A stretch of DNA of 64,000 bases from Solibacillus silvestris (GTDB lineage: Bacteria; Bacillota; Bacilli; Bacillales_A; Planococcaceae), in assembly GCA_001586195.1 (NCBI GenBank), contig CP014609.1, positions 408,001 to 472,000 on the forward strand, read 5' to 3'. Shown in pieces: positions 3,587 to 47,898 of this stretch. The translations under genes were made by a program, and so were the position numbers. The notes under the pieces were generated by a model. The model saw only the letters and a list, made by a program, of their open reading frames with translations. It searched no databases and was not told the origin of the DNA. Every line of letters starts with the position of its first letter. Within the stretch, counting starts at the first letter, position 1.

Positions 3587-3902
3587 TCTAATATAAACTG
3601 AAGTTGTTCTAATAAATCTTAGAATGATCTAATAAGTAATTCATTTTCTAATAAAAAGTTAGTTTCTTCTAATAAGTGTTCCTCATTTTCAAATATCATT
3701 GTTCAAAGTTCAAATAAGTCAGTTGGAACTTCTAATAAAGGTTGGATTGTTCTAATAAAATACATAGAGTAAATAAATTAGCACGGTTGCAGAATAGATA
3801 TAATTAAATATTCAAGCCAAATATATGAAAGTGCTAATATCAGTACCGGAAGTTCTAATATAGTGGGGAAATTATCGAATATATTCCACAATCTTTCTAA
3901 TA
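3587..3902. repeat. 21-bp ladder array, TCTAAT flavour
   Basis: The hexamer TCTAAT (variants TCAAAT, TCGAAT) starts at 3587, 3608, 3628, 3647, 3668, 3689, 3710, 3731 and 3751, and again at 3854, 3875 and 3896. Steps are 19-21 bases, mostly exactly 21. Spacers are unrelated in sequence. The array fills most of the 480-base gap between two SLH genes; I see no gene in it. See also the arrays near 4.8, 7.8, 14.9, 17.4, 24.8, 36.6, 41.8 and 47.8 kb. Confidence 0.85.
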
Positions 3903-4008
3903 AAGCTGTTTGAGGTTAATGAGATACCAGTTGTATAGTTATCATCTACATAAAACTAAAACTATTGTATAATTGTGCTAATTAGTTTAATCGAAAGGAT
4001 TGATGTAA

Positions 4009-4668
4009 ATGAAGAAATTATTCAACGTATCAATACTTACTGTAGTGCTTGTTATTATTTCAAGTGTTATCGTAAGCGGCCATTCAGTACAAGCATCTAC
4101 AAATCCATTTACCGATGTAAAAGAAACGAATTCCCATGCCAATGCAATAGTTTCATTATATAATGAAGGAATTATTACAGGTGTGACGAGTAAAACTTAT
4201 GAGCCTGGTAAATCGGCAACACGTGGGGATGCAGCATTATATTTAGCGAACGCATTAAATCTGCAAATTACTACCGCGCCAAATCCGGAGTTCAAAGATG
4301 TTCCAACAACAAGCAAATATTACAAAGCCATCGCAGCATTAAATAAAGCAGGCATTGTAAACGGTTATGGCGATGAATTCCGCCCAAACGCAACTTTGAC
4401 TCGTTCTCAGTTAGCCAAAATGTTAACGATCGGTTTTGAGTTGCAGCAATCTACTACTACAAAAACGAAATTCACAGATGTCAACAAGTTAACAGATACT
4501 GCAACGAAGAAGTACATTCAGACCTTAGTTGATTATGAAATTACAAAAGGTACGACAGCTACAACATTCAGCCCGAACATGAAATTGACACGTGCCCAGT
4601 TAGCGACATTTTTATATAATGCAATCCAAGCCACTTCTGATGACTTTATTGTAATTGGTATAGAATAA
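4009..4668 (+). CDS. Small secreted protein consisting of three SLH domains
   Basis: 219 residues. Signal peptide 1-29 (MKKLFNVSIL start, cleavage after SVQA). The remainder is almost only SLH: domain 1 about 33-77 (motif ATRGD), domain 2 about 92-137 (NGYGDEFRPN, TRSQ), domain 3 about 150-207 (TRAQ). There is no catalytic domain, so it should act as a wall-polysaccharide-binding protein, S-layer filler or competitor; that is inference. The start ATG is preceded by AAAGGA. An overlapping ORF on the same strand from 3975 is a shadow. It stands alone between a ladder array and its own terminator. Confidence 0.9.
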   Translation: MKKLFNVSILTVVLVIISSVIVSGHSVQASTNPFTDVKETNSHANAIVSLYNEGIITGVTSKTYEPGKSATRGDAALYLANALNLQITTAPNPEFKDVPTTSKYYKAIAALNKAGIVNGYGDEFRPNATLTRSQLAKMLTIGFELQQSTTTKTKFTDVNKLTDTATKKYIQTLVDYEITKGTTATTFSPNMKLTRAQLATFLYNAIQATSDDFIVIGIE

Positions 4669-4687
4669 GGAAGCTTTTTGGGTAATG

Positions 4688-4722
4688 CACTTGAGTCTTG
4701 ATATAAGCTCAAGTGTTTTTTT
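4688..4722 (+). terminator. Rho-independent terminator
   Basis: Perfect 8-bp stem cacttgag / ctcaagtg followed by seven T, just after the small SLH gene. Confidence 0.9.
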
Positions 4723-4812
4723 ATGGGGAAATTCAGAGATTGAGGTTATGAAATAGAGGGGAGATAAGAAGTGGGAAGCTTTTATGTGTAAAGAGAAAGT
4801 TTATGCTTGAAA

Positions 4813-4966
4813 GTGGAAAATAAGCAGAGGAATGTAGAAAGTTTTTGCGAGAAAGTGGAACACATTATGAGGAAAGTAGAATTTCAGAAGGGAAAAGTAG
4901 AAAGTTTCGGCGTGAAAATAGAACCTTTTTGTCGAAAAGTAGAACCACGCCGCCGAATACTAGACC
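4813..4966. repeat. 21-bp ladder array, GTAGAA flavour
   Basis: GTAGAA or a one-base variant (GTGGAA, ATAGAA, CTAGAC) begins at 4813, 4834, 4855, 4876, 4897, 4918, 4939 and 4960: eight units with exactly 21-base steps. The 15 bases between hexamers differ from unit to unit. Lies in the 481-base gap between two SLH genes. Confidence 0.9.
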
Positions 4967-5149
4967 CCCAACCCTAATAAAGAAATACCTACTAAAGGAA
5001 GCGAGAATTACCATCGCTTCACAACAAGTAGCGTGCTACACTTAATTTGATTGCTATTATTCTATTAAATATTGTACATTTCAGTGAAATATATGGCGAT
5101 TTTCGGTATAATTTATACGTTATTGAAATAAAAGGAGGGAATCTGTCGA

Positions 5150-7717
5150 ATGTTGAAAATAAAATCAGCACTGTTAGCCTCGCTACTATTTTTATCCACA
5201 GCGCTACCAACCGCAACGTATGCAAATGTACAAGGCACAGTTGAAGCTGAAAATCCAACAGTACAAAATTCAACCACTACTACGACTCAAACTACGGATT
5301 CCGGTAATAATCCGGTAGTTCAAGAGGAAACGGTTACAGATGAAAAGGAAGCGGAATCCACTTCTGCAGACGAAAAAGCTGAACAGACAACGACAACACC
5401 TGCTCAGCCAGAACCACAAACAGAAACATCTCCAGAAAAAGAGGAATCAGTAGAGCAAGAGTCTCCGGCACAAACAGAACAACCTGCAACTGATGCGGAA
5501 CAAAACGAGTCATCAGAGGAGCCAGCTAATCAGCCGCAAACAGGTGAGCGATTAACGGTTAAGCAGAAGCTTGCGGATGTGCCGGATAATTTCTGGGCTA
5601 AAAATGAAGTGATGCAGCTAGTAGAGATGGGCGTAATCGGCGGTTACCCGGATGCACAGTTCCGCCCCAATCTAAATATTAACCGTGGTCAGGCGGCAAA
5701 CCTGTTTAAAGGTGCGTTAAAGCTTCCGGACGGTAAATATCAAAACAAGTTTTCGGATGTAAGTGCGAAATCTAGCTTTTTACAAGGTGTATTTTCTACA
5801 TATGAAGCTGGTATTTTTGGCGGTAAACCAGACGGACGTTTCGGTGTAGCGGATGCGTTAACACGTGAACAGATGGCGACGACTCTAGTGCGTGCATTTG
5901 ATTTGAAAGATACAGGTAAGGAACTGACATTTAAAGACTGGAACAAAATCAGTGAATCACATCGCGAGAATGTTAAAATTTTAGCCCAGCATGGAATTAC
6001 AACAGGGCGTGAAGACGGTACTTACGATCCGAAAGCAACAGTTAACCGTGTAACGTTCTCAGTCATGCTTCACCGTGCACTAGTTGCAACAAATCAAATT
6101 GCAAAAAATGAATATAAAGTTCAAGCAGCAGAAGTATCAAGTAATTTTAAAAACAATCGTGAAGAAATGAACTTTGCACAAGTAACATCTGATGCAAACC
6201 CGTTATATCTTCGTTCAACAGCTACGATTGTATTTAAAGGAACAACGACTGAAACTTACGGTGTTGCAAAGGATACAGTTTATAATTATGCAGTCGGGAA
6301 CCAAGGTGCAACAGTGAAAGTAACAGTTCGAGCTTTGGAAAACGGCGATGATTTTGTATTTACAACGTTAACAAATAAGGGGAAATCAAAGCTGACTGTG
6401 GATTTATTCCAGAAAGCAACGAATGTAACAAATTACCGATTGTACCGATATGATCGTTTCCCAATCGAAAAAAACTCGGCTGATGTATTTGGCTTTGACT
6501 CGTCATCATACCCGACAGGATTATTACGCATTATGGAGAACGAAAAGCTGGCGACAGATCGTATGGTCGGAAAGGCATATCGTTCAAAACAATTAACACA
6601 AAGCTATAAAGATACTGGCGGGACAAGCTATATGCGTGATCTGGAATCGGAGTACGAAGCGTATTCACAAGCATGGCTTGGCGAAGATTTATTCAGCTAC
6701 TATACACTTGTTTCTAATGGCAACGATATTGTTGACACATGGTATATGAATTCAAATGAACGTTTATTTAAAACAGATGAAAATATGAATGGCTGGATGC
6801 TTGAAACTGCGCTTAACTATAAAAAGCGTAACAACTGGTACACAGCAGAAGGTCCATACAATAAAATGGCGACAACTACAGAGCCAATGCCGAAATCTTA
6901 CCAAGGGTTCGGGCGTAATCTATTGTTGGTAAAAGAAGACCGTGCACTTGTATTATTAAAAGAACAGGGCGACCGTTATTTTGCAAACTTAGTGAAAAAC
7001 TCGTTCATTAACTTGAATAAGTTTAAAGGCGACGCGACTTACTGGAAGACTGAAGTAACAAGTACGTATTTGAAAAACTTATTTGGCATTACAGCACCAT
7101 TTATCGACACGCGCTTCAATGAGCAGATTGCGTTATTCTACTATAATTCCGGGGCCGAGTTTAATATGCCGAACTATAAAGAGCCATTACGTAATTATGC
7201 AGACCTTTTAGCATCACGTAAACAAGCGGGGCATGTAATTAATGTCGCTAAAGATGCTTATTATATTTCAGATTACTTCCCTGTGAATCAGCAGGTGACA
7301 ACACATGCATCGATGAACCATGTACTTGGTGGCATGAATGTTCTGTTGTTGGCATATAAAGAATTCCAGGATCCAAAATATTTAGAAGCGGCAAAATCGA
7401 TTAGCCGTGCATTGCAAATTGAGAAGAACAAGTGGATCCGTTCAAACGGAGATATTTGGTACCGTGTGAATCCAAAAGGTGAATTTGCCGGTGATGATTA
7501 TCAGCACTTAACGCTTGAAGACTTGATCAACTCTTATAAAAACTGGAAAGATGTAGATCCATCACAATTACCGGTGTTTGAAGAAATGCTGATTTCAAAA
7601 GCGAATTATTTATCGGAAAACCGTTTAGGTCACACATACAAAATTAAAAATGGCCTTGAAGAAATCGGCATGTCCGAGTATTTACCAGAAGGCAAATTAT
7701 ATACAGACGCATTGTAA
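5150..7717 (+). CDS. SLH-anchored exoprotein with large unrecognised C-terminal domain
   Basis: 855 residues. Signal peptide about 1-25 (cleavage near TYA-NVQ). Residues about 27-135 are a Thr/Glu/Gln/Pro-rich, strongly acidic linker. Three SLH domains follow, about 138-305 (GYPDAQFRPN, NRGQ, TREQ, NRVT). The remaining 550 residues are cysteine-free and rich in Trp and Tyr. They begin with a beta-rich part and end in helical segments around a YYISDYFP stretch and GDIWYR, reminiscent of alpha/alpha-barrel carbohydrate-active enzymes such as C5-epimerases. I cannot name the family. A role on wall or S-layer glycans is inference. Start supported by AAAGGAGG at 5131-5138; a strong terminator follows. 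Confidence 0.85.
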   Translation: MLKIKSALLASLLFLSTALPTATYANVQGTVEAENPTVQNSTTTTTQTTDSGNNPVVQEETVTDEKEAESTSADEKAEQTTTTPAQPEPQTETSPEKEESVEQESPAQTEQPATDAEQNESSEEPANQPQTGERLTVKQKLADVPDNFWAKNEVMQLVEMGVIGGYPDAQFRPNLNINRGQAANLFKGALKLPDGKYQNKFSDVSAKSSFLQGVFSTYEAGIFGGKPDGRFGVADALTREQMATTLVRAFDLKDTGKELTFKDWNKISESHRENVKILAQHGITTGREDGTYDPKATVNRVTFSVMLHRALVATNQIAKNEYKVQAAEVSSNFKNNREEMNFAQVTSDANPLYLRSTATIVFKGTTTETYGVAKDTVYNYAVGNQGATVKVTVRALENGDDFVFTTLTNKGKSKLTVDLFQKATNVTNYRLYRYDRFPIEKNSADVFGFDSSSYPTGLLRIMENEKLATDRMVGKAYRSKQLTQSYKDTGGTSYMRDLESEYEAYSQAWLGEDLFSYYTLVSNGNDIVDTWYMNSNERLFKTDENMNGWMLETALNYKKRNNWYTAEGPYNKMATTTEPMPKSYQGFGRNLLLVKEDRALVLLKEQGDRYFANLVKNSFINLNKFKGDATYWKTEVTSTYLKNLFGITAPFIDTRFNEQIALFYYNSGAEFNMPNYKEPLRNYADLLASRKQAGHVINVAKDAYYISDYFPVNQQVTTHASMNHVLGGMNVLLLAYKEFQDPKYLEAAKSISRALQIEKNKWIRSNGDIWYRVNPKGEFAGDDYQHLTLEDLINSYKNWKDVDPSQLPVFEEMLISKANYLSENRLGHTYKIKNGLEEIGMSEYLPEGKLYTDAL

Positions 7718-7723
7718 TAAAAA

Positions 7724-7759
7724 ATCACTCTATTCTTTATTGGATAGAGTGATTTTTTT
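7724..7759 (+). terminator. Rho-independent terminator
   Basis: Perfect 10-bp stem atcactctat / atagagtgat, flanked by A-run and T-run, immediately after the SLH gene. Confidence 0.9.
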
Positions 7760-7762
7760 AGT

Positions 7763-7990
7763 GGCGGATAGATATAAAAAATGACTATTAAAAATAGAAT
7801 TGCCGATTATCTCATGTAAAGTGTCGATTATTTGAGTTAAATTGACTAATAAGCTTACAACTTTGAATAATATGTTTAGATAATTGGCGAATAAATGTTG
7901 TCAGTTACGGACTTTGCAACTTTACAATGCATTTTGACGAATAAGGATCCCCTTTTGGCGAAAATAGCATGTAAAGTGTCGAATATATAT
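7763..7990. repeat. 21-bp ladder array, CGAATA flavour
   Basis: Motifs of the form (g/t)(g/t/a)CGA(a/t)TA occur at about 7802, 7823, 7844, 7886, 7936, 7957 and 7978. Four of the six steps are 21 or 42 bases and one is 50. Read on the minus strand these are TATTCGCC/TATTCGAC units, the same flavour that appears inside the GTAGAA array near 24.9 kb. No gene is visible in the 397-base gap. Confidence 0.7.
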
Positions 7991-8114
7991 TGGGCTCACT
8001 AACCCTAAATCCTTTTCCTTATAAATCAACTAACAAACTGTGAGAATATGCCGATAATTAACCTAGGATTATGAACCATTTTGAAGCACTACCCATGAAG
8101 GAAGGGATAAAACG

Positions 8115-12155: not shown

Positions 12156-12186
12156 TTTAATTGAAAATATTATAGTTTAATTACTG

Positions 12187-12232
12187 TACCCCAAAAGGTA
12201 GAATGGAAAATCTGCCTTTTGGGGTATTTTTT
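12187..12232 (+). terminator. Rho-independent terminator
   Basis: Perfect 12-bp stem taccccaaaagg / ccttttggggta, then a T-run, 32 bases after the helical-repeat gene. Confidence 0.95.
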
Positions 12233-12409
12233 AGAGTAAACTTACATTTGAGCTGGACGCTTTTTAGCAGAAAATAAGATTGATTCTGGTCGAATTTGGC
12301 GTAGAATTTCTATTTAGTGGCTTTTAAGTTAGTTGACAAGTTTTCTGTTAAGAGAAAAGTAATTAATTCATTGTATAATAATAGGAAATGGACTGATAGG
12401 GGGGGTTTG

Positions 12410-13471: not shown

Positions 13472-13494
13472 TATGGTAAATACTAGTACCTTAC

Positions 13495-13511
13495 ATTACA
13501 GTAATGTTACA
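13495..13511 (-). promoter_or_regulatory. Possible WalR-type box
   Basis: On the minus strand the sequence reads TGTAAC-ATTAC-TGTAAT, which matches the WalR (YycF) consensus of two TGTWAH half-sites separated by five bases. It lies between the CAP gene stop and its terminator, about 245 bases upstream of an NlpC/P60-SLH gene. The distance, and the terminator in between, make direct control uncertain. Confidence 0.3.
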
Positions 13512-13543
13512 AAATATAATTTCATATTATAAAAATTCTATTA

Positions 13544-13585
13544 AAAACACCAAATCTCTGCGTAAATACAGGGATTTGGTGTTTT
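13544..13585 (+). terminator. Rho-independent terminator
   Basis: 13-bp stem aaaacaccaaatc / gatttggtgtttt with T-rich tail; A-rich on the other side too, so it may work in both directions. Confidence 0.8.
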
Positions 13586-13755
13586 CTGTTTTTATATCGA
13601 ATTACTACAAACTGTTACACAAGTGAAAAATAATATCACAATTATATATGTTACCCTGTTATTAGGTTAAATAAACATGAACAAACAAGTTTTACGTTAT
13701 GTTATACCTCGAATATTCATCACGAGGCCTATTTTGAAGGGAGTTCCATTTTAAA

Positions 13756-14832: not shown

Positions 14833-14850
14833 GTTTTTGGGGGAGCTTTA

Positions 14851-15185
14851 TTAGCAGTTTACGGTGGGAAAGTAGAAAATTTTTATATAAAGTAGAACAT
14901 TTGCAAGGGAAAGTGGAAAGTTTTACTCCTGATGTGGAACAATCAGCACTAAAAGTAGAACGCGACAACTCTATTAGAAATTCTCAGAATGAAAGTGGAA
15001 ACTTTTTTGCCTAAAGTAGAAGTTTACGAGAGAAAGTAGAACCTTTAACTCCTAATGTGGAACAATCAGCACCGAAAGTAGAACAAGCCAACTCTATTAG
15101 ACATTCTCTGTCTGAAAGTAGAACCTTCAGCTCCTAATGTGGAACAGTACACAATTAAAGCAGCACATCACCAGTTTATTAGCCA
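14851..15185. repeat. 21-bp ladder array mixing GTAGAA and TTAGAA flavours
   Basis: Units begin at 14851 (TTAGCA), 14872, 14892, 14913 (GTGGAA), 14934, 14955, 14974 (TTAGAA), 14995, 15016, 15036, 15057, 15078, 15097 (TTAGAC), 15118 and 15139, with a further TTAGCC near 15179. Nearly all steps are 19-21 bases. The TTAGAA-type units sit in phase with the GTAGAA units, which ties the array flavours together. Two stretches around 14934-14995 and 15057-15118 are near-copies (aatcagcac..., aactctattag...), a higher-order repeat of about 123 bases. Confidence 0.9.
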
Positions 15186-17334: not shown

Positions 17335-17336
17335 TG

Positions 17337-17377
17337 AACTGAGTGGCTTCCTGGCAGAGGGGGCTGCTCAGTTTTTT
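17337..17377 (+). terminator. Rho-independent terminator of the amidase gene
   Basis: Stem aactgag / ctcagtt with an imperfect inner stem (tgg..., ...ctg) and a T-run. Confidence 0.85.
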
Positions 17378-17388
17378 GTTTTCGATTT

Positions 17389-17560
17389 GCTAATATCTTT
17401 ATCAGAAGTTCTAATATCCTGAAAAATGTTCTAATAAAAGTGCCAAGTTCTAATAAAATAGGTTTCTCTTCTAAAATGACATCCGGATGTTCTAAAATCA
17501 TAGCCGGAAGTTCAAATATCCTATCCCATTCTTCTAATAACCTTCACAACTTTTCTAATA
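17389..17560. repeat. 21-bp ladder array, TCTAAT flavour
   Basis: TCTAAT/TCTAAA/TCAAAT units begin at 17389 (GCTAAT), 17410, 17430, 17449, 17470, 17491, 17512, 17533 and 17554; the last five steps are exactly 21. It sits between two convergent wall-hydrolase genes and their terminators. Confidence 0.9.
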
Positions 17561-17592
17561 AACAACAACTCTCGCAACCTCAGCCCCAACTC

Positions 17593-17629
17593 AAAAAAAA
17601 TCCAGCACTTCCGTAGAAGTACTGGATTT
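17593..17629 (-). terminator. Rho-independent terminator of the glucosaminidase gene
   Basis: Minus-strand stem of 14 bp with one mismatch (aaatccagtacttc / gaagtgctggattt) followed by eight T on that strand. Confidence 0.9.
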
Positions 17630-17634
17630 AAATA

Positions 17635-24593: not shown

Positions 24594-24600
24594 TAAAGAA

Positions 24601-24649
24601 CCTTTGTAAAGTTGCAGCGAGGAATCGCAACTTTTACAAAGGTTTTTTT
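24601..24649 (+). terminator. Rho-independent terminator
   Basis: Long stem cctttgtaaa(a)gttgc / gcaacttttacaaagg followed by seven T. Confidence 0.95.
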
Positions 24650-24807
24650 ATGGAGAAATGGGGGCGTTGGGGAAGAGAGGGAGGGAATTAAATGAATTGA
24701 GGTTGAAACGGAGAGTTTTACTACGTAGAATGTAATTTTTTATGGGGAAGGTGTAAGTATTGGCTTCTGTGTTGTTGAAACTATAGAATATTATAGCGCG
24801 GAAGTAG

Positions 24808-25335
24808 GACGCTTACGCTGGGGCTAGAAAGTAGAACCTCGTGTCATGAAAGTAGAACATTTCCCGGGTATAGTAGAAAGTGTCATTCGAAAAGTAGAAC
24901 GGGTTGCGAGTATTCGCCAAGTTGTCGGAGAAAGTAGAAAGATATGGTGCGGAAGTAGAATGCTTTTGGATTAAAGTAGAATTTCGCACCAAGAAAGTAG
25001 AACGTTTCTCGGGTAAAGTAGAAAGTTTCATTCGAAAAGTAGAACGGTTTGCGAGTATTCGCCAAGTTGTCGGAGAAAGTAGAAAGTTATGGTGCGGAAG
25101 TAGAATGCTTTTGGATTAAAGTAGAATTTCGCACCAAGAAAGTAGAACGTTCTCATATAAAGTAATAAGTTTTATTCCGAAAGTAGAATCGGTTGCGAGT
25201 ATTCGCCAAGTTGTCAGAGAAAGTAGAAAGATATGGTGGGAAAGTAGAACTTCGCACCAAGAAAGTAGAATGAATTAACGCTAATGTAGAACCTAGCCCC
25301 AGAAATATAGAACTTTACCCGGAAAAACTAGAAGA
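24808..25335. repeat. Long 21-bp ladder array with 145-bp higher-order repeat
   Basis: More than twenty GTAGAA-type units, mostly with 21-base steps. In every higher-order copy one 40-base double step contains an internal TATTCGCC, so it reads as a GTAGAA unit plus a TTCGCC-flavour unit. The block gcgagtattcgccaagttgt recurs at 24906, 25051 and 25195 (steps 145 and 144), and the sequences between are near-identical in the first two copies: a tandem amplification of seven ladder units. The array fills most of the 800-base gap before the NERD gene. Short ORFs here encode seven-residue repeats only because 21 is divisible by three. Confidence 0.92.
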
Positions 25336-25394
25336 ATATACTTCGTAAGTAACTCATCACCTCCTTTAAGTGAAAAATCACATAAGAAAACAAC

Positions 25395-36456: not shown

Positions 36457-36505
36457 TACATAGCTTACACACACTACTACATACTGCATAATTCGTAATT
36501 ATAAT

Positions 36506-36536
36506 CTCTCACCTTTTATAGGGTGGGGGATTTTTT
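36506..36536 (+). terminator. Weak terminator
   Basis: Short wobble-containing stem (ctcacc / gggtggg) followed by six T, 50 bases after the NlpC/P60 gene. Confidence 0.4.
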
Positions 36537-36614
36537 AGTGTGGTTTGGGCTTGGTAGTGCGGCTGAATGATAGATTGGGTTTCTATATTTTGAGGGGGGA
36601 AGCTAGATTGGATG

Positions 36615-36915
36615 GCGTTCTACTTTTAGAGCGGGGAATTTTCTCTATAAGTTTCGACGTGTTCCCCATTATGAGCGCTTGGTTCTACATTAGCGCTGAA
36701 ACTTTCCACATTTCCTGATTGAATGGCGAATAAAAAGTCGAAGTTCTACTTTCAATGCGGAAGTTTCTACATTTCGAGACAGGATGGCAAATAAAGAATT
36801 AGCGTTCTACTTTTTAAGCAAAACTTTCTACATAAGCCCCGCAATTTTCCACATTACCAGCGTTCCGTTCTACATTAGCAAAGAAACTTTCTACTTTTCC
36901 CGAAAAATCGGCAAA
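36615..36915. repeat. 21-bp ladder array in reverse orientation, mixed flavours
   Basis: On the minus strand the units read GTAGAA, GTGGAA and occasional TTCGCC/TTTGCC (plus-strand TTCTAC, TTCCAC, GGCGAATAA, GGCAAATAA). More than ten units lie at about 20-21-base steps through the 550-base gap between convergent genes. This is the clearest array with its GTAGAA units on the minus strand. Confidence 0.85.
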
Positions 36916-36948
36916 TAAAAGCGAGCCCCCTAGAAGCGAGCCACAAAC

Positions 36949-36988
36949 CAAAAAAGCACCCGAAAGCCAGTTAATGACTTCCGAATGC
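36949..36988 (-). terminator. Terminator of the slaP-secA2 operon
   Basis: Minus-strand stem of 13 bp with G-U pairs (gcattcggaagtc / ggctttcgggtgc) followed by six T. Confidence 0.8.
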
Positions 36989-37005
36989 TGTCTGTTCATA
37001 TAAGC

Positions 37006-37911: not shown

Positions 37912-37914
37912 CTG

Positions 37915-40275: not shown

Positions 40276-40526
40276 TATTTTACTCTCCTTTGAAATTGGC
40301 TACTTTAATATAGTAGACACTCCGTTATTTTATCAAATAATGCACAAAAAGACTACTGAACAAAAGGGAATTCATAGGAACAATATAAATAAATTGGATG
40401 AACCTCTCTTTTATAATATTAATTATTTGATTAGTTTGAAATATACTAGAAGAATGATAGATGTAAAATTTATGTGAGCGGAATAAATAGTGGAAGGAAT
40501 TTGAGCTATATTTTATGAATTGTTCA

Positions 40527-40535
40527 TGCTATACT
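40527..40535 (+). promoter_or_regulatory. Candidate extended -10 promoter of tagO
   Basis: TGCTATACT, 90 bases upstream of the tagO start, with no good -35. It is identical to the element ahead of csaB. The remaining bases of the 350-base gap between secA2 and tagO are AT-rich with nothing else convincing. Confidence 0.4.
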
Positions 40536-40625
40536 TATGTTGAATAAAAATGTAGAGTTTTTAATGAATCTCCAAAAGGCGATTTATTGTAATGCTTAAT
40601 ACTACAAAAATTAAGGAGGAGAGAC

Positions 40626-41681
40626 ATGATTTACGTGTCTTTAATCGTAGCTTTTATTGCTGCTATTATACTAACTCCGCTTGTGAAGCGATTGGCTTTT
40701 CGCCTTGGAGCTGTAGATGCCCCGAACTATCGTAAAGTGCATGCTCGCATTATGCCACGATTAGGCGGTTTAGCAATTTTTGGTGCGTTTATGATCGGGA
40801 TATTACTTTTAAAATTAGTCACGAACTTCGAAAGTGACTACTTATATGCAATTTTAATTGCCGCGACAATTATTGTAGCAACAGGTGTTGTCGATGATAT
40901 GCGGGAAATTTCCGCAAAGGCTAAGCTGCTTGGTCAAGTAATTGCTGCCTGCATCGTTGTATTTGTCGGCGGTATTCAAATTGATAATATTAACTTACCG
41001 TTTGGTGGGGAACTGGAATTCGGCTGGTTAGGTATTCCGTTCACAATTATTTGGATTGTTGGTATTACTAATGCGATTAACTTAATCGATGGTCTTGATG
41101 GACTAGCTGCAGGTGTCTCAACAATTGCGTTAATGACATTAGCCGTAATGGCAATGATCATGGGTAACGGTATTGTTATCGCAATGGCTGCTATTTTGGC
41201 TGCTGCAACAATCGGTTTCCTGTTTTTCAACTTCCACCCAGCAAAAATTTTCATGGGGGACACAGGTGCACTGTTTTTAGGATTTATGATTTCGGTGCTC
41301 GCGCTATTAGGATTTAAAAACGTAGCTGTTATTTCATTCGTTATCCCGGTTATTATGCTGGGAGTTCCAATTTCTGATACATTCTTCGCGATCGTGCGTC
41401 GTTTACGTAGCGGTAAAAAGTGGTCGGATCCGGATAAATCGCATTTACACCACCGTTTATTGGATTTAGGATTCTCGCATCGTCAAACAGTGATGATTAT
41501 TTATGCGATGGCTGCAATGTTCGGTCTCGCTGCTGTCATCTTCTCGATGGCAAAAGTATGGGGCGCAATTCTACTCATTGCCGTTATACTAGTGGCGATT
41601 GAACTGTTCGTAGAAATTATCGGCCTCGCCGGCAAAAACTACAAACCATTGCTCAACCTCGTAAGAATATTTAATAAGTGA
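40626..41681 (+). CDS. tagO: Undecaprenyl-phosphate GlcNAc-1-phosphate transferase
   Basis: 351 residues with about ten membrane helices. WecA/MraY family marks: RKVHARIMPRLGG (about 37-49), DDMREIS (about 90-96, the metal-binding Asp pair), NAINLIDGLDGLAAG (about 143-157), NFHPAKIFMGDTGA (about 201-214) and SHLHHRLLDLGFSHRQ (about 264-279, the His motif of GlcNAc-specific members). It makes undecaprenyl-PP-GlcNAc, the first lipid intermediate of wall teichoic acid or secondary wall polysaccharide. In an SLH organism it probably starts the polymer that CsaB pyruvylates. ATG follows AAGGAGGAG. Confidence 0.92.
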   Translation: MIYVSLIVAFIAAIILTPLVKRLAFRLGAVDAPNYRKVHARIMPRLGGLAIFGAFMIGILLLKLVTNFESDYLYAILIAATIIVATGVVDDMREISAKAKLLGQVIAACIVVFVGGIQIDNINLPFGGELEFGWLGIPFTIIWIVGITNAINLIDGLDGLAAGVSTIALMTLAVMAMIMGNGIVIAMAAILAAATIGFLFFNFHPAKIFMGDTGALFLGFMISVLALLGFKNVAVISFVIPVIMLGVPISDTFFAIVRRLRSGKKWSDPDKSHLHHRLLDLGFSHRQTVMIIYAMAAMFGLAAVIFSMAKVWGAILLIAVILVAIELFVEIIGLAGKNYKPLLNLVRIFNK

Positions 41682-41764
41682 AAAGATCGAAACAAGTAAA
41701 TGGCTTTGTGCCGTTTGCTTGTTTTTTATTTAAGGGGAATTTAGTTGCCAAATTGTTGGAGGAA

Positions 41765-41936
41765 GTAGAAAGTTTGGGGGCTAAAGTGGAAAGAGATGAA
41801 GTGAAAGTAGAAAGCTCTGAAGCTAAAGTAGAAGCTTCTCGTGGAAATGTAGAACGGATCACCTGAAAAGTAGAACGCGTGAATTTATTAGCAAATTCGC
41901 AGGAAAAAGTGGAACAGTATGCCCGTAATGTAGAAC
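41765..41936. repeat. 21-bp ladder array, GTAGAA flavour
   Basis: Units begin at 41765, 41786 (GTGGAA), 41807, 41828, 41849 and 41870, then TTAGCA at 41888, and 41909 and 41930. Steps are 21 except one of 18. It fills the gap between tagO and the convergent LCP gene. Confidence 0.9.
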
Positions 41937-41964
41937 ACCCCCTATACTAGTAGAAACGCCATAT

Positions 41965-41999
41965 AAAAAACCAACCCCCGCATTACTTGCGGAGGTTGG
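41965..41999 (-). terminator. Terminator of the LCP gene
   Basis: Minus-strand 11-bp stem ccaacctccgc / gcgggggttgg (one mismatch) followed by six T. Confidence 0.85.
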
Positions 42000-42005
42000 T
42001 TTCGG

Positions 42006-43055
42006 TTATTGTGTATCGGAATTTGTTTTTGTTGTATAAGCTGAGTTGGATTGGGAGCTTGTGCCCGAAATGTTTGTCGATTCCGGAGTAAGTCCTAAAT
42101 GACTTTTTAAAATATGGCTTGTTTCTGCAAGCGCTTCTTCATCCAGTTTGTAATAGTAAACACCTGTAGACATGTCGTCATAGCCTTCCAGCGTTAATGT
42201 ATCAATGCGAGGCATGCCGTTTGTTAAATAGCTGAAGAACGATTTCATCTCTGTAAATGTCATATCTGTCTTCATGTTGTTTCCAACAGCGGATAAAATA
42301 TCATCATATTTTGAAAGTGATGTAAATGACGCTGCTTTAGAAGCGATTGCCTGAATGATTTCCTGCTGCCGTTTACCGCGTTCAATGTCATTGTCCTGTT
42401 TACGTGTGCGGGCAAGTGCCAGTGCTTCACGGCCGTCCAATGTTTGCAATCCTGGCTGCAAGTTGACTGTGTTGCGGTCGAACTCGTCTTTTTCAAGCAT
42501 TGCGTATGGTACTTCTGCTTCAATGCCGCCTAATGCATCGACAATCTCGATGAAGGCATTAAAGTTTACACGCATATAGTAATCAATTGGGATATCAAAT
42601 AATTTTTCTACCGTTTCAATTGAAGCAAGTGTGCCACCGCGCGCATGTGCATGGTTGATTTTATCGTTATATCCGATGTGAGGGATGTAAACATATGAAT
42701 CACGTGGAATACTTACTAGTTTAACTGTTTTTGTTTTATTGTTCAAAGTGGCAAGCAATAGGGCATCGGTGCGGGAATTGTCTGCACCTTGTCCGCGCTT
42801 ATCACTATCATCGACACCTAAAATTAAAATAGATACATTGTCTTGGGCAGGCTCAACTTTTACTTCTCGCTGGTCCGACATTTTGCGGTCCTCGATAACT
42901 TCATATGCACTGTCTGCTGCATGTTCGGCTTGCTTCGTCAAATAGACACCGTATGCTGTTGCACAAATTGCGAGTGAAAGAGTCAGAAGCATCGTAACTT
43001 TAAGAAATAATCTGAATTTCGAAGAGCCTTTCTTTTTATTTTGCCTTGTTGTCAT
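42006..43055 (-). CDS. LytR-CpsA-Psr (LCP) family wall-polymer ligase
   Basis: 349 residues. One N-terminal membrane helix (about 17-37) with a short Lys-rich cytoplasmic start. The outer LCP domain (about 70-300) carries NSRTDALLLATL, VSIPRDSYVYIP with the catalytic Arg-Asp, NDKINHAHARGG, and LDGREALALARTRKQDNDIERGKRQ. A Ser/Thr-rich tail follows. LCP enzymes move lipid-linked teichoic acid or other wall polymers onto peptidoglycan; here the likely substrate is the TagO-initiated polymer. In B. subtilis the orthologous position holds lytR/tagU next to yvyE, as here. Confidence 0.93.
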   Translation of the reverse strand: MTTRQNKKKGSSKFRLFLKVTMLLTLSLAICATAYGVYLTKQAEHAADSAYEVIEDRKMSDQREVKVEPAQDNVSILILGVDDSDKRGQGADNSRTDALLLATLNNKTKTVKLVSIPRDSYVYIPHIGYNDKINHAHARGGTLASIETVEKLFDIPIDYYMRVNFNAFIEIVDALGGIEAEVPYAMLEKDEFDRNTVNLQPGLQTLDGREALALARTRKQDNDIERGKRQQEIIQAIASKAASFTSLSKYDDILSAVGNNMKTDMTFTEMKSFFSYLTNGMPRIDTLTLEGYDDMSTGVYYYKLDEEALAETSHILKSHLGLTPESTNISGTSSQSNSAYTTKTNSDTQ

Positions 43056-43196
43056 AAAGATTCTCCTCTAGGTTAGGGATAGGTTACTATATTTAATTGG
43101 TTATACTAGTTAATTCGTAATCTTATCTAATATACTACAATCACCTTTTGTCGTAAAGTAACGAAGTCTTGCATTATGATGACATTTATTTCGAGG

Positions 43197-43832
43197 TTAT
43201 TCCTTCGAAAATTCGATGAAAAGCGCGTCTTCGTTTTTAATTGCTGCCTGGCCGTTTGTCAGTTCAGTAATCCAGTCGATAAATGTTTGCTCTTCTTCTT
43301 TTAAAACATGTACATAAATTTCTACATTTTCCGCATACTGAATATCATGAAGAAGGTAGTGGGAACCACGTATTTCATTTTCTAATTTCCCTAACCACAC
43401 ATAATCAATCTCAATTTTCATTAAATAATGCAATTTTCGCTCAACAACTTGGGCAGCAGCGATTCCTTCTGTTGTAGCTTTACTATATGCACGGATCAAA
43501 CCGCCTCCGCCCAGCTTAATCCCGCCGAAATAGCGAGTGACGACAACAACCGTATCTTTTAAACCTTGTTTTTTAAGTACTTCTAACATAGGGACGCCTG
43601 CAGTACCGCTTGGTTCCCCGTCATCATTCGCTTTTTGGATCTGGTCATGCTCACCAATCATATAGCAGGAGCAGTTATGGGTAGCCGATGCATGAATCTT
43701 TTTTATTTTATCTATAAAGAGAATCGCTTCTTCTTCTGTCTCAACGCGTTCTACATAAGTTAAAAAACGTGATTTTGATATGATGATTTCTGATTCTCCG
43801 TAACCTTTTACAGTAATGTAGTTATTTCTCAT
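43197..43832 (-). CDS. yvyE: YigZ/IMPACT family protein
   Basis: 211 residues with the UPF0029 (IMPACT) domain first (SRFLTYVERVETEEEA, ATHNCSCYMIG, DDGEPSGTAGVPML, TRYFGGIKLGGGGLIRAYS) and a C-terminal DUF1949-type domain. Function is not firmly known; members are linked to translation-associated factors. It lies divergent from degS exactly as yvyE does in B. subtilis. ATG 43832 follows AAGGAG. Confidence 0.9.
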   Translation of the reverse strand: MRNNYITVKGYGESEIIISKSRFLTYVERVETEEEAILFIDKIKKIHASATHNCSCYMIGEHDQIQKANDDGEPSGTAGVPMLEVLKKQGLKDTVVVVTRYFGGIKLGGGGLIRAYSKATTEGIAAAQVVERKLHYLMKIEIDYVWLGKLENEIRGSHYLLHDIQYAENVEIYVHVLKEEEQTFIDWITELTNGQAAIKNEDALFIEFSKE

Positions 43833-43993
43833 TATCGATTCTCCTTAATATTACAATTTGATTTCAAATTTGTGGTTATAATTTAACTTAAAAAATGATT
43901 TACTAATGATATAATATGTATGTACTATAATAGTAGGTTGCAAAGTAAAAAGATAGAGTAGTTCGCATTCTGACTAAGTAAGGTGGGGAAAAA

Positions 43994-45157
43994 GTGCTAG
44001 AAAACAATCAAATAGACATCGCCTCGCTTGATGTAATATTTAATCGAATGTTGGAAACTATTACAAGTTCGAAAGATGATGTATTTATTATAAGCGAACA
44101 AAGCCGCAGAAACTTTGAAGAAATGCAACAAGAGCTGGAAGTTGTGCGTCATGAAATAAAGATTATAATAGATGAAAGTGATAACTTGGAAAAGTTGCTT
44201 CAATTGTCTAGACAGCGATTAGTCGTTGTAAGTAAAAGTTTCAATAATCATTCAGAAGAGCAAATACGTGCAGCTTATGAAAATACAAGTAACTTACAAT
44301 TAAAGGTCTCCCTTTGCCGGGAGCGCGAAAAGCAGCTAAGAGATAAGCGTGACGATTTGGAAAGGCGCCTGCGCACACTTTATGATACGATTGAAAGAGC
44401 GGATCATATCGTGAACCAAGTAAATGTTGTTATCAATTTTTTGACGACCGACCTGAAAAATGTCGGAGCAGCACTGGAACAGGCGAAGATCAAACAAGAT
44501 TTTGGCATACGTATTATCGCAGCCCAGGAAGAAGAACGAAAACGTTTATCGCGTGAAATTCATGATGGGCCTGCACAAATGATGGCGAATGTGCTGATGC
44601 GTTCGAATTTAATTGACCGCACTTTCCGAGAAAAAGGAGCAGACGCCGCTTTAAAAGAAATTCATGACTTGAAAATAAGCGTTCGCAACGCCTTATCAGA
44701 AGTACGCCGCATTATTTATGATTTACGTCCAATGGCACTCGATGATTTAGGTATTGATCCAACATTGAAAAAGTATTTATCTACGATTATGGAATACAAT
44801 CCAGGTGTTGAGATTCAGTTCCTTTCATATAATAACGAGCGCAGAATCCCTACAGATTATGAGGTGGCAGTTTTCCGTTTAGTGCAGGAAAGTGTAAATA
44901 ATGCATTGAAACACGGAAAGCCGAACCTGATTATTGTTAAACTAGAGTGGTTATGTGACGAAATTAATGTTGTAGTAAAAGATAATGGGGTTGGATTTGA
45001 TACGGAAAGCGCTCGTGAAGGATCTTTCGGTATTATAGGAATGAAAGAAAGAATTGATCTACTGAAAGGTTCTTTGAAAATTAGCAGCAGCATCGGTAAA
45101 GGAACAACAATTTTAATGAAAATTCCATTGCCGACAAAAGATGAAGAGATAAGATAG
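43994..45157 (+). CDS. degS: DegS, cytoplasmic sensor histidine kinase
   Basis: 387 residues from GTG 43994 (AGGTGGGG upstream). No membrane segment. The N-terminal half is a long coiled coil (sensory DegS domain). HisKA_3 has the phospho-acceptor His190 in [12 protein letters not shown], and the ATPase domain follows with [19 protein letters not shown] and GIIGMKERI. It phosphorylates DegU to control exoenzymes, motility and competence in bacilli. degU starts 22 bases downstream; the pair is one operon. Confidence 0.95.
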
Positions 45158-45179
45158 CAGAATTCCAGGGGGTTTCGAA

Positions 45180-45854
45180 ATGACGAAAATTATTATTGTA
45201 GATGATCACCAATTATTCCGTGAAGGGGTAAAACGTATTTTAGATTTTGAAGACACATTCGAGGTTGTTGCTGAAGGTGATGACGGTACAGATATCGTAA
45301 ACTTGTATGAACAAAACGAACCGGATGTCGTATTAATGGACATTAATATGCCAGGTAAAAACGGTGTAGAGGCGACAGCTGATTTAATCGCTGTATATCC
45401 GGATGCGAAAGTAATGGTTTTATCAATTCATGATGATGAATCTTATGTAACACACGCATTAAAATCAGGTGCCCTTGGCTATATGCTGAAGGAAATGGAT
45501 GCCGATGAAATCGTTGAAGCAATCAAAGTTGTTTCAAACGGTGGTTCATACCTGCACCCGAAAGTAACGAAAAATCTGGTTGCGGAATTCCGCCGTCTTT
45601 CGGAGCACGAAAACAAAGGTAATTTCCACCAAACAGAGATTCGCCGTCCATTCCACTTATTAACGAAGCGTGAATGCGAAGTGCTTCAATTATTAACAGA
45701 TGGCCAATCAAACCGTACAATCGGTGAGACATTATTCATCTCGGAAAAAACGGTTAAAAACCATGTATCAAGTATTTTACAAAAAATGAATGTTAATGAC
45801 CGTACACAAGCAGTTGTAACAGCAATCAAAAACGGCTGGGTAGAAGTACGTTAA
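45180..45854 (+). CDS. degU: DegU, response regulator
   Basis: 224 residues. Receiver domain about 1-120 with acidic pocket DD at 8-9, phospho-acceptor Asp54 in [10 protein letters not shown], and a conserved Lys near 105. LuxR-type helix-turn-helix at about 155-220 ([38 protein letters not shown]). Controls degradative enzymes, flagellar genes and competence; it binds the comF region and flgM region in B. subtilis, both of which lie just downstream here. A terminator follows. Confidence 0.95.
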
Positions 45855-45874
45855 TTACATATTAAACGTTACAG

Positions 45875-45905
45875 CAAGGATACGATTTTTGTATCCTTGT
45901 TTTTA
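45875..45905 (+). terminator. Terminator of degSU
   Basis: Perfect 9-bp stem caaggatac / gtatccttg followed by a T-run. Confidence 0.9.
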
Positions 45906-45939
45906 TTTTTGCATATTATTACCGATTAATAAATAGTTA

Positions 45940-46035
45940 TAGCCGCGTAATCTATGAAACATCTGTGAACAAGATTCGTCCTAATGTTTTGAAGACGATA
46001 GCAAATAATTCGAACATCGAATTTTTACGCGGCTA
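45940..46035. repeat. 96-bp element with 11-bp perfect terminal inverted repeats
   Basis: TAGCCGCGTAA at 45940-45950 is the exact inverse of TTACGCGGCTA at 46025-46035. Inside are further short hairpins: atct/agat (45961-45975), tcgtc/gacga (45976-45998) and attcg/cgaat (46008-46022), so the whole can fold as a branched RNA. It could be a MITE-like insertion with TA ends or a structured leader; no T-run follows. Confidence 0.5.
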
Positions 46036-46152
46036 AAGAAGGTATTCGTTTTCAATGAAACCAGCATAAGAAAACATTATTCGTGCTATTTAATACAAGA
46101 TGTGTTTTTCTAATATTGTGTGCTAAAATGTTTTGCGGGAGGTTGTAAAATT

Positions 46153-46668
46153 ATGAAAAAATGGTTCGTAGCTGTACTGGCGGTTTTTGTACTGGCAGCT
46201 TGCGGGGATAAAGAAGAAGCTTCACCTGAAAATCTGCAAAAAACGATCGACGAAGGTACTGTAGGTTTTGAAATGATGGGAGATTCGATTGAAGAAGCTA
46301 CAGATGTCCCGGAAGAAGAAAAAAATAATATTATCTCTGCTTTTAATGAGTATATTGCAGCCTTTAATGAAAAAGATCTAGAACGTTATAAAAATATAAT
46401 TTCAAAAAATGCGACAGGCTTTAATTATGATGAAGACATCGAGGCAGTTTCCGACGTGTTTAATCAATATGATGTAAAACGTACGGCTGAAGATATTACG
46501 ATTGTTAAATATAGTGGCGAAGAAGCCCAAGTATTTTCCAATTTAAAGACCGAAACGAAAGAAATTGACACTGGTGCCGAACTATCCGGTGTCGGCCGCC
46601 AAGTAACGGTATTTAAGAAGGAAGACAGCTGGAAAGTTTCAAGTATCTATTATATCGGTAGTGAATAA
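46153..46668 (+). CDS. Lipoprotein with NTF2-like domain, function unknown
   Basis: 171 residues from ATG 46153, chosen for GGGAGG nine bases upstream and because the lipoprotein signal begins there (MKKWFVAVLAVF, lipobox LAAC with Cys near 21). The mature part is acidic. Residues about 65-170 look like an NTF2/SnoaL-like cone fold (FNEYIAAFNEKDLERYKNII, then VTVFKKEDSWKVSSIYYIG). Such domains bind small ligands or act as immunity or scaffolding modules; I cannot say which. Located between degSU and degV, where B. subtilis has no such gene. Own terminator. Confidence 0.8.
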   Translation: MKKWFVAVLAVFVLAACGDKEEASPENLQKTIDEGTVGFEMMGDSIEEATDVPEEEKNNIISAFNEYIAAFNEKDLERYKNIISKNATGFNYDEDIEAVSDVFNQYDVKRTAEDITIVKYSGEEAQVFSNLKTETKEIDTGAELSGVGRQVTVFKKEDSWKVSSIYYIGSE

Positions 46669-46695
46669 AAACTTATCTTCTATAATATAAAGTAA

Positions 46696-46732
46696 AAACG
46701 TCTTGTGCGAATCGATGCCAAGATGTTTTTTT
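46696..46732 (+). terminator. Rho-independent terminator
   Basis: 10-bp stem aaacgtcttg / caagatgttt (one G-U) followed by a T-run. Confidence 0.85.
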
Positions 46733-46844
46733 CATATAGCGATGAGGTTGAGACAGCGGGAAGTTCCCTATAAGAATGGCAATTTACCGTTCACAATTAT
46801 AGTGAGTTCATGTAAACTAATGAACATAGGAGAGTGGGAGAGCG

Positions 46845-47687
46845 ATGAAAACAGCAATTGTTACAGATAGTACAGCCTATTTAACACTTGAAGAACGAAA
46901 TTCGTACAATGTCCATATGATTCCTCTAAGTGTTAACATTGAAGGAACATTTTACGATGAAGAAATCGATATTACAGCTTCTGAATTTTACGACCGTGTG
47001 CGCGGTGCAGCGGAGTTTCCGAAAACAACGCAGCCCTCTGTCGGAAAATTTGTCGAGCTTTATGAAACATTAGGTAAGGATTATGATGAAATTGTAACGA
47101 TTCACTTATCAAGCGGAATTAGTGGAACTTTCCAAGGCGCGGTCCAAGCCGGTGCGATGGTGGAAGGTATAAATGTTCACGCTTTTGATTCGGAAGTTGC
47201 AGCCTACTTGCAAGGCTTTTATGTAAAAGAAGCTGCTAAACTAGCATCGAAAGGCGCTTCAGGCGAGCAGATTATGACACACTTAAACGATCTGAAAGAC
47301 ACGATGGATGATTACATTATTGTCGACGATCTGCAGCATCTGCAGCGCGGCGGTCGCTTATCAGCAGCAGCGGCATTGATCGGCGGATTACTTCAAGTAA
47401 AACCGATTTTAACTTTCCAGAACAAAGTCATCGTGCCATTCGAAAAAATTCGTACACGTAAAAAAGCACTACGCCGAGTGGAAGAACAACTCGCTTCAGC
47501 AGTCGAAAAGCACGGCGCTCTTCAAGCAACAGTGATTCACGCCAACTGTGAGAAAGAAGCACGCGAATGGATGAAATCTCTGGAAGCGGCTTACCCGACA
47601 GTCGATTTCACGCTAAGCTACTTCGGTCCGGTCATCGGCACGCATTTAGGTGAAGGCGCAATGGCGATGGGATGGATTAAGAAATAA
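46845..47687 (+). CDS. DegV/FakB-family fatty-acid-binding protein
   Basis: 280 residues, the normal DegV length. N-terminal domain starts VTDSTAYL; PKTTQPSVGKF and HLSSGISGTFQ are family signatures, followed by the VDDLQHLQRGGRLSAAAALIG motif (about 156-176). FakB proteins present a bound fatty acid to the FakA kinase for incorporation into phospholipid. It lies between degSU and comFA, as yviA does in B. subtilis. ATG 46845 follows AGGAGAGTGGGAG. Confidence 0.92.
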   Translation: MKTAIVTDSTAYLTLEERNSYNVHMIPLSVNIEGTFYDEEIDITASEFYDRVRGAAEFPKTTQPSVGKFVELYETLGKDYDEIVTIHLSSGISGTFQGAVQAGAMVEGINVHAFDSEVAAYLQGFYVKEAAKLASKGASGEQIMTHLNDLKDTMDDYIIVDDLQHLQRGGRLSAAAALIGGLLQVKPILTFQNKVIVPFEKIRTRKKALRRVEEQLASAVEKHGALQATVIHANCEKEAREWMKSLEAAYPTVDFTLSYFGPVIGTHLGEGAMAMGWIKK

Positions 47688-47700
47688 TTTTTTAGGCTTA

Positions 47701-47738
47701 ACAGTCACTACTTCTGAGGGAGTTAGTGGCTGTTTTTT
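47701..47738 (+). terminator. Rho-independent terminator
   Basis: 10-bp stem acagtcacta / tagtggctgt (one G-U) followed by seven T. Confidence 0.9.
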
Positions 47739-47766
47739 TGAAGTGTGGGGAGGTGGGCGGCGGGAA

Positions 47767-47898
47767 TTAGAAGTTTGTGGCTGGAAAGTAGAACGTGGGC
47801 CGTGAAAAGTAGAAAGTCACAGGGCGAAAGTGGAATGTGGGCCCCTGAAAGTCGAATATGAACAGGAAAATGTAGAATCTATCGTATGAAAAGTAGAA
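47767..47898. repeat. 21-bp ladder array upstream of comFA
   Basis: Seven hexamers at 47767 (TTAGAA), 47788, 47809, 47830 (GTGGAA), 47851 (GTCGAA), 47872 and 47893, every step exactly 21. The array starts 29 bases after the degV terminator and ends 75 bases before the comFA start. Confidence 0.92.

What the first reader, a model, noticed from the sequence alone, without database searches (positions are those of the whole stretch)
3587..47898. Nine intergenic arrays of a hexamer repeated every 21 bp
In nine separate gaps a short hexamer recurs at 21-base steps with variable 15-base spacers. At 4813-4966 eight units, and at 47767-47898 seven units, keep exactly 21 bases every time. That is two helical turns, so the hexamers lie on one face of the helix and the adjoining A-runs could bend the DNA. 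Spacers are not conserved, so this is not an ordinary tandem repeat, CRISPR or MITE. It could be a protein-binding ladder (nucleoid protein, boundary, condensin or membrane tether), or an RNA-level element. I know of no described element like it.
Basis: partly seen in the sequence, partly recalled or inferred. Interest (0 to 1): 0.85.

Follow-up and report, generated by a model that had tools for sequence, protein, structure and literature searches.

The report
Helix-phased word ladders between genes
Many gaps between genes in Solibacillus and some related bacteria hold ladders of a short DNA word repeated about every two helix turns, kept in step over evolution while the DNA between the words drifts, which looks like an undescribed docking scaffold on the chromosome.

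Summary
Eight of 30 window gaps (not nine) hold ladders, built on two 9-base words: AAAGTAGAA (A) and TTCTAATAA (T); 30 shuffled passes gave none. Steps are mostly 21, but 19, 20 and 39/40 occur at fixed places. Of 31 long T ladders examined in this genome, 27 have exactly nine words with the same opening steps. The best-fitting period is 20.6 bp, i.e. 10.28-10.33 bp per turn, in eight sets covering three words and three genera. In orthologous T ladders, words changed at 5%, spacers at 27%, with 4 gap columns inside against 71 outside. They are not coding, show no RNA fold or covariation, and match no Rfam family. Three of 12 same-genus relatives scanned carry other words at the same step. The A family is almost gone from two species that keep T. 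Best reading: a DNA-level scaffold for a cooperatively binding, word-specific, still unidentified protein. Seven literature searches for such an element showed no description in their listings.

The parts
3586..3758 (+). T ladder, nine words (TTCTAATAA type), steps 21,20,19,21,21,21,21,20
3832..3903 (+). second T block, words at 3832, 3853 and 3895 (one missing), 73 bp after the ninth word
4810..4944 (+). A ladder, seven words (AAAGTAGAA type), all steps 21
14869..15165 (+). A ladder, 12 words with 40/42-base double steps; 123-bp tandem block
17388..17561 (+). T ladder, nine words, steps 21,20,19,21x5; orthologous ladder of the same length in G001, G008 and G012
24828..25333 (+). A ladder, 22 words, mostly in 145-bp blocks (five steps of 21 + 40)
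36683..36897 (-). A ladder, nine words with two 40-base double steps; between convergent genes
41762..41955 (+). A ladder, nine words with one 39-base double step; between convergent genes
47764..47898 (+). A ladder, seven words, all steps 21

Best explanation
Each ladder is a cis-acting DNA scaffold. A sequence-specific protein (not identified) recognises the 9-10-base word; successive words lie two helical turns apart on the same face, so copies bind side by side and cooperatively build a nucleoprotein structure (of fixed size in the T form) in DNA set between gene ends. The required pitch is about 20.6 bp (10.3 bp per turn), which integer spacing meets with runs of 21 corrected by 39/40-base joints, or by the 20-19 pair inside T ladders. 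Spacer sequence is nearly free; spacer length is not. The word is read by a specific factor: related lineages use other words, and a whole word family can vanish from one species while another stays. Placement outside divergent gaps (T) suggests a chromosome-level role (domain anchoring, insulation or topology) rather than control of particular genes. Shown: the architecture, phasing, constraint, word diversity and family-wide near-absence. Inferred: the protein, cooperativity and the chromosomal role.
For: Best helical repeat 10.28-10.33 in 8 of 8 data sets, coherence 0.77-0.97; one of these sets held the same G171 ladder twice, and without the duplicate it gives 10.29 from two ladders. In 13 of 31 long T ladders a second block follows, its first word 71 (2), 81-83 (9) or 91-92 (2) bases after the last word, that is about 7, 8 or 9 turns of 10.3: spacing shifts by single turns. 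Orthologous T ladders: words 43/828 changed, spacers 313/1169, outside 267/1206; gap columns 0 in words, 4 in spacers, 71 outside. 27 of 31 long T ladders have nine words with opening steps 20/21, 20/21, 19. T ladders lie in 0 of 31 divergent gaps, against 46 of 230 background gaps. Other words at the same step in 3 of 12 same-genus relatives scanned, two of them in the slot that holds an A ladder here. A pairs with the relaxed word number 1 each in G004 and G007, which keep 324 and 72 T pairs; G005, sister of G007, keeps 31 A pairs. No covariation, no fold excess, no avoidance of stop codons.
Against: No binding protein is known or was found, and no binding data exist. That the period reflects DNA helix turns is inference. 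The ortholog test used five of the eight ladder gaps with 3-5 species each; pairs are not independent, some species with usable gaps were left out (G008 in two gaps, G005 in two), and words were located with up to two mismatches, which favours conserved words (softened by counting a column as word if either species has it). A ladders gain and lose whole blocks freely, so their length is not fixed. Three of 15 A ladders sit between apparently divergent genes (crude gene calls). Six of 12 same-genus relatives scanned showed no ladder in the sampled gaps, so the element is dispensable for the genus.
Confidence: 0.55

Rival explanations
1. Selfish or neutral repeats: the ladders are a mobile or recombination-driven repeat family; the words are binding sites of the machinery that copies them, with no benefit to the host.
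For: Many copies; patchy distribution (T pairs in 20 of 250 family genomes, of which 13 have ten or more and seven have one, as often as control hits); presence/absence at orthologous slots; block duplications in A ladders; unit-specific consensus in T ladders points to common descent.
Against: Words stay conserved relative to spacers in orthologous copies; no common gene was seen by eye near ladders in three low-copy species; spacers of different loci look mostly dissimilar (by eye). Terminal repeats and target duplications were not tested.
Confidence: 0.22
2. Gyrase or supercoil sink: the phased AT-rich words and GC-rich spacers make strong gyrase sites, like E. coli BIMEs.
For: Location at gene ends, convergent gaps included; alternating composition, word GC 0.12-0.24 against spacer GC 0.42-0.49. 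BIME-2 elements have properties of strong gyrase sites and sit between genes (PMC6379681, passages).
Against: The E. coli gyrase motif has 10.75-bp periodicity and is degenerate (same passages); here the period is 10.3 with strict, directional, lineage-specific words. Gyrase would not explain near-absence of one word family only.
Confidence: 0.08
3. RNA-level element: the ladder acts in transcripts, as repeated sites for an RNA-binding protein or as antisense or 3' RNA.
For: 8 of 15 A ladders lie downstream of a gene in that gene's direction.
Against: T ladders occur in both orientations relative to genes (14 sense, 7 antisense, 10 convergent); no fold excess (mean z -0.40 to 0.64 over 47 ladders, first 190 bases, both strands); no covariation above shuffles in 27 T ladders; exact spacing is hard to explain for unstructured RNA.
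Confidence: 0.08
4. Direct pairing of double helices: identical short words at matching helical positions let distant ladders recognise each other without a sequence-specific protein.
For: Analogy only: in Neurospora RIP, trinucleotides matched every 11 or 12 bp are enough (PMC4858203, abstract). Nine-word T ladders share the same opening steps.
Against: The pitch differs (20.6 against 11-12), I know of no bacterial precedent, and near-absence of one word family is easier with a specific protein.
Confidence: 0.03
5. Decayed or hidden coding sequence for heptad repeats (KVExxxx or LLExxxx).
For: 21 bases = seven codons; the words read KVE and LLE in frame.
Against: In-frame stops are as common as in column-shuffled spacers (A 13 of 138 against 14.5; T 25 of 200 against 24.2); 19-, 20- and 40-base steps break the frame at fixed places; the GAA codon hardly varies to GAG.
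Confidence: 0.01

Closest known systems
Iteron arrays and ParR/parC-type plasmid centromeres (recalled, not retrieved here)
   Same: Direct repeats of a protein-binding word at about two helical turns, bound cooperatively
   Different: Those are one or a few sites beside their own rep or par gene; here dozens of ladders across the chromosome, with no common gene seen by eye in the low-copy species examined, two words in one genome and a fixed nine-word form
REP/BIME elements of enterobacteria
   Same: Interspersed between genes; family differs by species (recalled)
   Different: REPs are palindromes (recalled); ladders show no fold excess and are directional and helically phased
E. coli gyrase motif
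   Same: Periodic composition change along wrapped DNA
   Different: 10.75-bp period and degenerate sequence (PMC6379681, passages) against 10.3 and strict words
CRISPR arrays
   Same: Short repeats separated by variable spacers
   Different: 9-base word and 10-12-base spacers; step is tuned to 19/20/21 at fixed places
DNA uptake sequences and Chi sites (recalled)
   Same: Species-specific short words
   Different: The words are not clearly enriched as single copies in coding DNA; they occur as ladders

Membership tests
CRISPR array | Repeats of about 23-50 bases with spacers of about 25-50 bases (recalled) | tested here: not met
   9-base words and 10-12-base spacers
CRISPR array | cas genes nearby | not tested
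   Only ten window genes beside ladders were searched in Pfam; none matched a Cas family
REP/BIME | Palindromic stem-loop unit | tested here: not met
   Mean fold z near 0 for 47 ladders on both strands; 3 of 94 folds below -2
MITE | Terminal inverted repeats and target-site duplication | not tested
   Boundaries were only viewed
Ordinary tandem repeat (minisatellite) | Whole unit conserved between neighbouring copies | tested here: not met
   Only about 9-10 of 21 positions carry strong information; A blocks are additionally duplicated in tandem
Protein-coding repeat | Open reading frame without stops | tested here: not met
   Stops at shuffled frequency
Structured RNA family | Match to an Rfam model | tested here: not met
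   0 matches at gathering score over the window
Structured RNA family | Base-pair covariation | tested here: not met
   Top mutual information 0.76 against 0.72-0.81 in three shuffles, 27 aligned T ladders
Iteron/ParR centromere | Direct repeats phased on the helix | tested here: met
   Coherence 0.77-0.97 at 10.28-10.33 bp
Iteron/ParR centromere | Located beside its rep or par gene on a replicon | tested here: inconclusive
   Neighbours listed for ladders of this genome and three low-copy species are varied genes with no common partner; judged by eye, not searched in a family library
Gyrase site | 10.75-bp periodic composition | tested here: not met
   10.28-10.33 against 10.75 in PMC6379681; word positions were fitted, not composition
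DNA uptake sequence | Word over-represented as single copies genome-wide | tested here: not met
   Coding DNA of a 400-kb sample: AAAGTAGAA 8 against 4.5 expected, TTCTAATAA 8 against 5.2, TTCTAATAT 5 against 4.7, GTTCTAATA 3 against 2.5; slightly high, far from uptake-sequence levels

The most novel reading that the evidence does not exclude
A previously undescribed class of bacterial chromosomal element: ladders tuned to 10.3 bp per turn, each a sequence-encoded template for a wrapped or filamentous protein-DNA body, of set size in the nine-word T form. The word is exchangeable and is matched by a lineage-specific DNA-binding factor, so that a species can lose one word family genome-wide and keep another: a bacterial, sequence-programmed counterpart of a positioned nucleosome array or dispersed centromere.
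Probability: 0.35. Interest if true: 0.92.

Novelty: categorically new. Interest (0 to 1): 0.82.

Why it matters
If right, dozens of loci per chromosome in Solibacillus and relatives encode a nucleoprotein structure whose pitch (10.3 bp per turn) can be read straight from sequence. Species that lack one word family but keep the other are natural knock-outs that point to the binding factor by comparing gene content. It would open a new layer of sequence-encoded chromosome organisation in Firmicutes, one that similarity searches miss because spacers are free and words are short.

Tried and rejected
Coding heptad repeats: rejected. RNA structure: no support from single folds or covariation. CRISPR, REP and Rfam families: rejected. 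DNA uptake/Chi-like single words: no clear enrichment in coding DNA. Linked partner gene: the surroundings of T ladders in G002, G015 and G013 showed no common gene by eye; a gene that looks like enolase adjoins one ladder each in G002 and G015 and one in G000. The genome collection scan gave 110 stretches, 80 shown: many in Solibacillus and Ureibacillus, and mostly single hits elsewhere that were not examined. De novo scan of 18 of the 20 stretches fetched (two very short ones dropped; one had no gap called) and of five more from G003, G011 and G013 found no ladder, so density elsewhere is low or uneven. Literature: seven searches for the element and two for analogues, open PMC text only, judged from listings (one search listed 30 of 109 papers, 12 of 57); none of the listed titles and abstract starts described such an element. 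Two papers were opened: PMC6379681 (12 of 19 passages) and PMC4858203 (abstract and outline). Replication-strand or ori-ter bias was looked at only from truncated listings and is not claimed. Relatedness of the words was tested against a reference word chosen after seeing them, so it is suggestive only.
Full report
WHAT IS THERE. The window is positions 408001-472000 of a 3.99-Mb single-contig genome. Its assembly is unnamed; its genus is Solibacillus by inference: three handles of the same genus have contigs of the same length as named records of S. faecavium, S. merdavium and S. palustris. Eight of 30 intergenic gaps hold ladders of a 9-base word; the same scan on shuffled gaps gave none in 30 passes. 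Six ladders use AAAGTAGAA (A), two use TTCTAATAA (T). In pooled profiles little beyond the word is strongly conserved (A, 185 units; T, 334 units); in reverse orientation the T word, TTATTAGAAC, shares TAGAAC with A's AAAGTAGAAC.

GENOME-WIDE. A pair pattern of the A word occurs 37 times in the genome, of the T word 46 times; the reversed control pattern 0 times for both. Loci around these hits were fetched. In them and the window I find 15 A ladders with six or more words and 31 T ladders with seven or more, no duplicates. These were chosen by exact word pairs, so weaker ladders are missed; a looser T pattern gives 219 pairs and further places that I did not fetch (listing truncated). In a 400-kb sample, 20 stretches spread over the genome, lag 21 and lag 42 are the two highest of 61 lags in intergenic DNA (60 and 51), yet a de novo scan of it found only two ladders, so the window is unusually dense.

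ARCHITECTURE. T ladders are not loose arrays: 27 of 31 have exactly nine words, and all 27 open with steps 20/21, 20/21, 19. In 13 of 31 a second block of three to six words follows; its first word starts 71 (2), 81-83 (9) or 91-92 (2) bases after the last word of the first block. Single units have their own consensus, for example the third spacer ends CGATT and the sixth word is often TTCAAATA. A ladders run n x 21 + 39/40, giving blocks near 123-124 or 145 bp; the joint often carries a T-like word (TATTAGAAG, TATTCGCCA). In Ureibacillus manganicus (G183) the T-word block is 3 x 21 + 40 = 103.

PHASE. Fitting one helical repeat to word positions gives 10.31 (A) and 10.29 (T) in this genome; 10.33 and 10.32 in G008/G001/G012; 10.29 in G183 and in G196 (Ureibacillus acetophenoni); 10.28 for the word CGAGCATAA in G078/G171 and 10.28 in G013. 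The G078/G171 set counted one G171 ladder twice; without the duplicate it is 10.29 from two ladders. Coherence is 0.77-0.97 at the best value, and -0.02 to 0.26 at 10.5 except in G013 (0.75), whose ladders are short. Runs of 21 overshoot 20.6 and the 39/40 joint brings the phase back. The distances between T blocks, about 7, 8 and 9 times 10.3, suggest that a single helical turn, not only the two-turn step, is the unit. That this equals DNA helix turns is inference; A-form RNA would give about 11 bp per turn (recalled).

CONSTRAINT. I gave five of the eight window gaps. In two T gaps (nine species pairs: six and three), words differ at 43 of 828 compared positions, spacers at 313 of 1169, other intergenic DNA at 267 of 1206; gap columns are 0, 4 and 71. 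In the gap 17335-17634 the ladder has no gap in any of six species pairs. In three A gaps (19 pairs) words differ at 245 of 2255, spacers at 889 of 2947, outside at 863 of 4351, but whole blocks come and go (gap columns 775, 1342, 598), so fixed length is a property of T ladders only. Left out: G008 in the gaps 3528-4008 and 4669-5149, G005 in 24594-25394 and 36457-37005. Pairs are not independent. Spacers are GC-rich: 0.49 (A) and 0.42-0.48 (T), against 0.36-0.37 in the flanks of the same ladders and 0.33 in the intergenic sample; this is unexplained.

WHERE. With both neighbours known, 31 T ladders (two of them in one gap) lie in 14 sense, 7 antisense, 10 convergent and 0 divergent gaps; background gaps are 146 codirectional, 46 divergent, 38 convergent. 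A: 8 sense, 4 convergent, 3 divergent of 15. Gene calls are crude. In two convergent window gaps, some relatives without a ladder (for example G004) have only what look like the two terminators (by eye). Neighbour genes are varied; by their first residues, recalled not searched, recA, dnaK/dnaJ, eno and murA are among them.

OTHER WORDS. A word-free scan of sampled gaps in 12 same-genus relatives found other words in three: TGGATAAAA (score 33), GGCTATTAA (27) and ACTAGCCAA (42) in G003, TATGAGCGA (42) in G011, TCGCAAATA (48), CGAGCATAA (42, twice) and GTATTTGCG (27) in G013; A-type ladders in G005, G006 and G007; and none in G002, G004, G009, G010, G014 and G015. Shuffles gave 4 of 454 gaps at 21 or more, the best at 27, so the two hits at 27 are not convincing alone. 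The slot 36457-37005, which holds an A ladder here and in G001, G005, G008 and G012, holds CGAGCATAA in G013 and GGATAAAA in G003, a degenerate A-like remnant in G007, and none that I can see in G002, G004, G006, G010, G011, G014 and G015 (read by eye; G009 unclear). CGAGCATAA pairs occur in 9 of 261 genomes of the order sample, 19 times in G013 and 25 and 31 times in G078 and G171, with a 103-bp block in G078; control hits: one each in two genomes. TATGAGCGA pairs number two, both in G011, so this one is not a large family. T pairs: 11 of 16 genomes of the genus (one control hit in G009) and 20 of 250 of the family: 13 genomes with ten or more pairs, among them G183 and G196, and seven with a single pair, which is no more than the control (11 genomes with one hit). 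A pairs outside the genus: one each in G016 and G038, not examined.

FAMILY-WIDE NEAR-ABSENCE. On a four-gene tree all eight species of one clade have T ladders (61-400 pairs); A pairs with the relaxed word number 31-108 in six of them but 1 each in G004 and G007 (control 1 each in five of the rich genomes). G004 and G007 lie on different branches. G007 still has a decayed A-like ladder in one slot. Independent loss of one word family, with the other kept, is most simply explained by a word-specific trans factor; the factor was not found.

NOT WHAT. Stops in the word's frame are as frequent as in column-shuffled spacers. Fold energies do not differ from shuffles on average in 15 A and 32 T ladders (first 190 bases, both strands, 40 shuffles each); 3 of 94 folds have z below -2, one at -3.69. 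No covariation exceeds shuffles in 27 aligned T ladders (modest power). Rfam: no match in the window. Words are at most slightly enriched as singles in coding DNA.

KNOWN RELATIVES. Works like: iteron or ParR-type phased arrays (recalled). Membership fails or is untested for the families listed. The E. coli gyrase motif has 10.75-bp periodicity (PMC6379681, passages), which does not match 10.3. Homology recognition in RIP uses 11-12-bp matches (PMC4858203, abstract). Seven full-text searches for the element gave no description in their listings; most subscription papers are not covered.

One search was made for the check; it removed a duplicate from one phase set and added the block distances.

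Noticed in passing
window 609-24593: A cluster of S-layer-homology proteins, several with cell-wall domains (NlpC/P60, Amidase_3, NAGPA). Five of the window's eight ladders lie in the gaps of this stretch.
   Followed up: no
L107 (G008), gap between orthologs of window genes 40626-41681 and 42006-43055: A long ORF that looks like a transposase sits right beside the A ladder in G008; recognised by eye, not searched.
   Followed up: no
window 24594-25394 and 36457-37005 and orthologs: Ladders of G001 and G008 are more alike than those of the sister species G008 and G012 (spacer differences 0.14 against 0.46 in the first gap, 0.12 against 0.38 in the second), which hints at exchange of these gaps between species.
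   Followed up: no
ladders of this genome: Spacers are richer in G+C (0.42-0.49) than the flanks of the same ladders (0.36-0.37) and other intergenic DNA (0.33); could be gene conversion or selection.
   Followed up: partly
L065 (G000), L176 (G002), L178 (G015): A T ladder lies at the 3' side of a gene that looks like enolase in G000, G002 and G015, which belong to different clades; the gene was named from recall.
   Followed up: no
L060, about 3470-3800, minus strand, after the T ladder: The tail resembles a cobalamin riboswitch (recalled, not searched).
   Followed up: no
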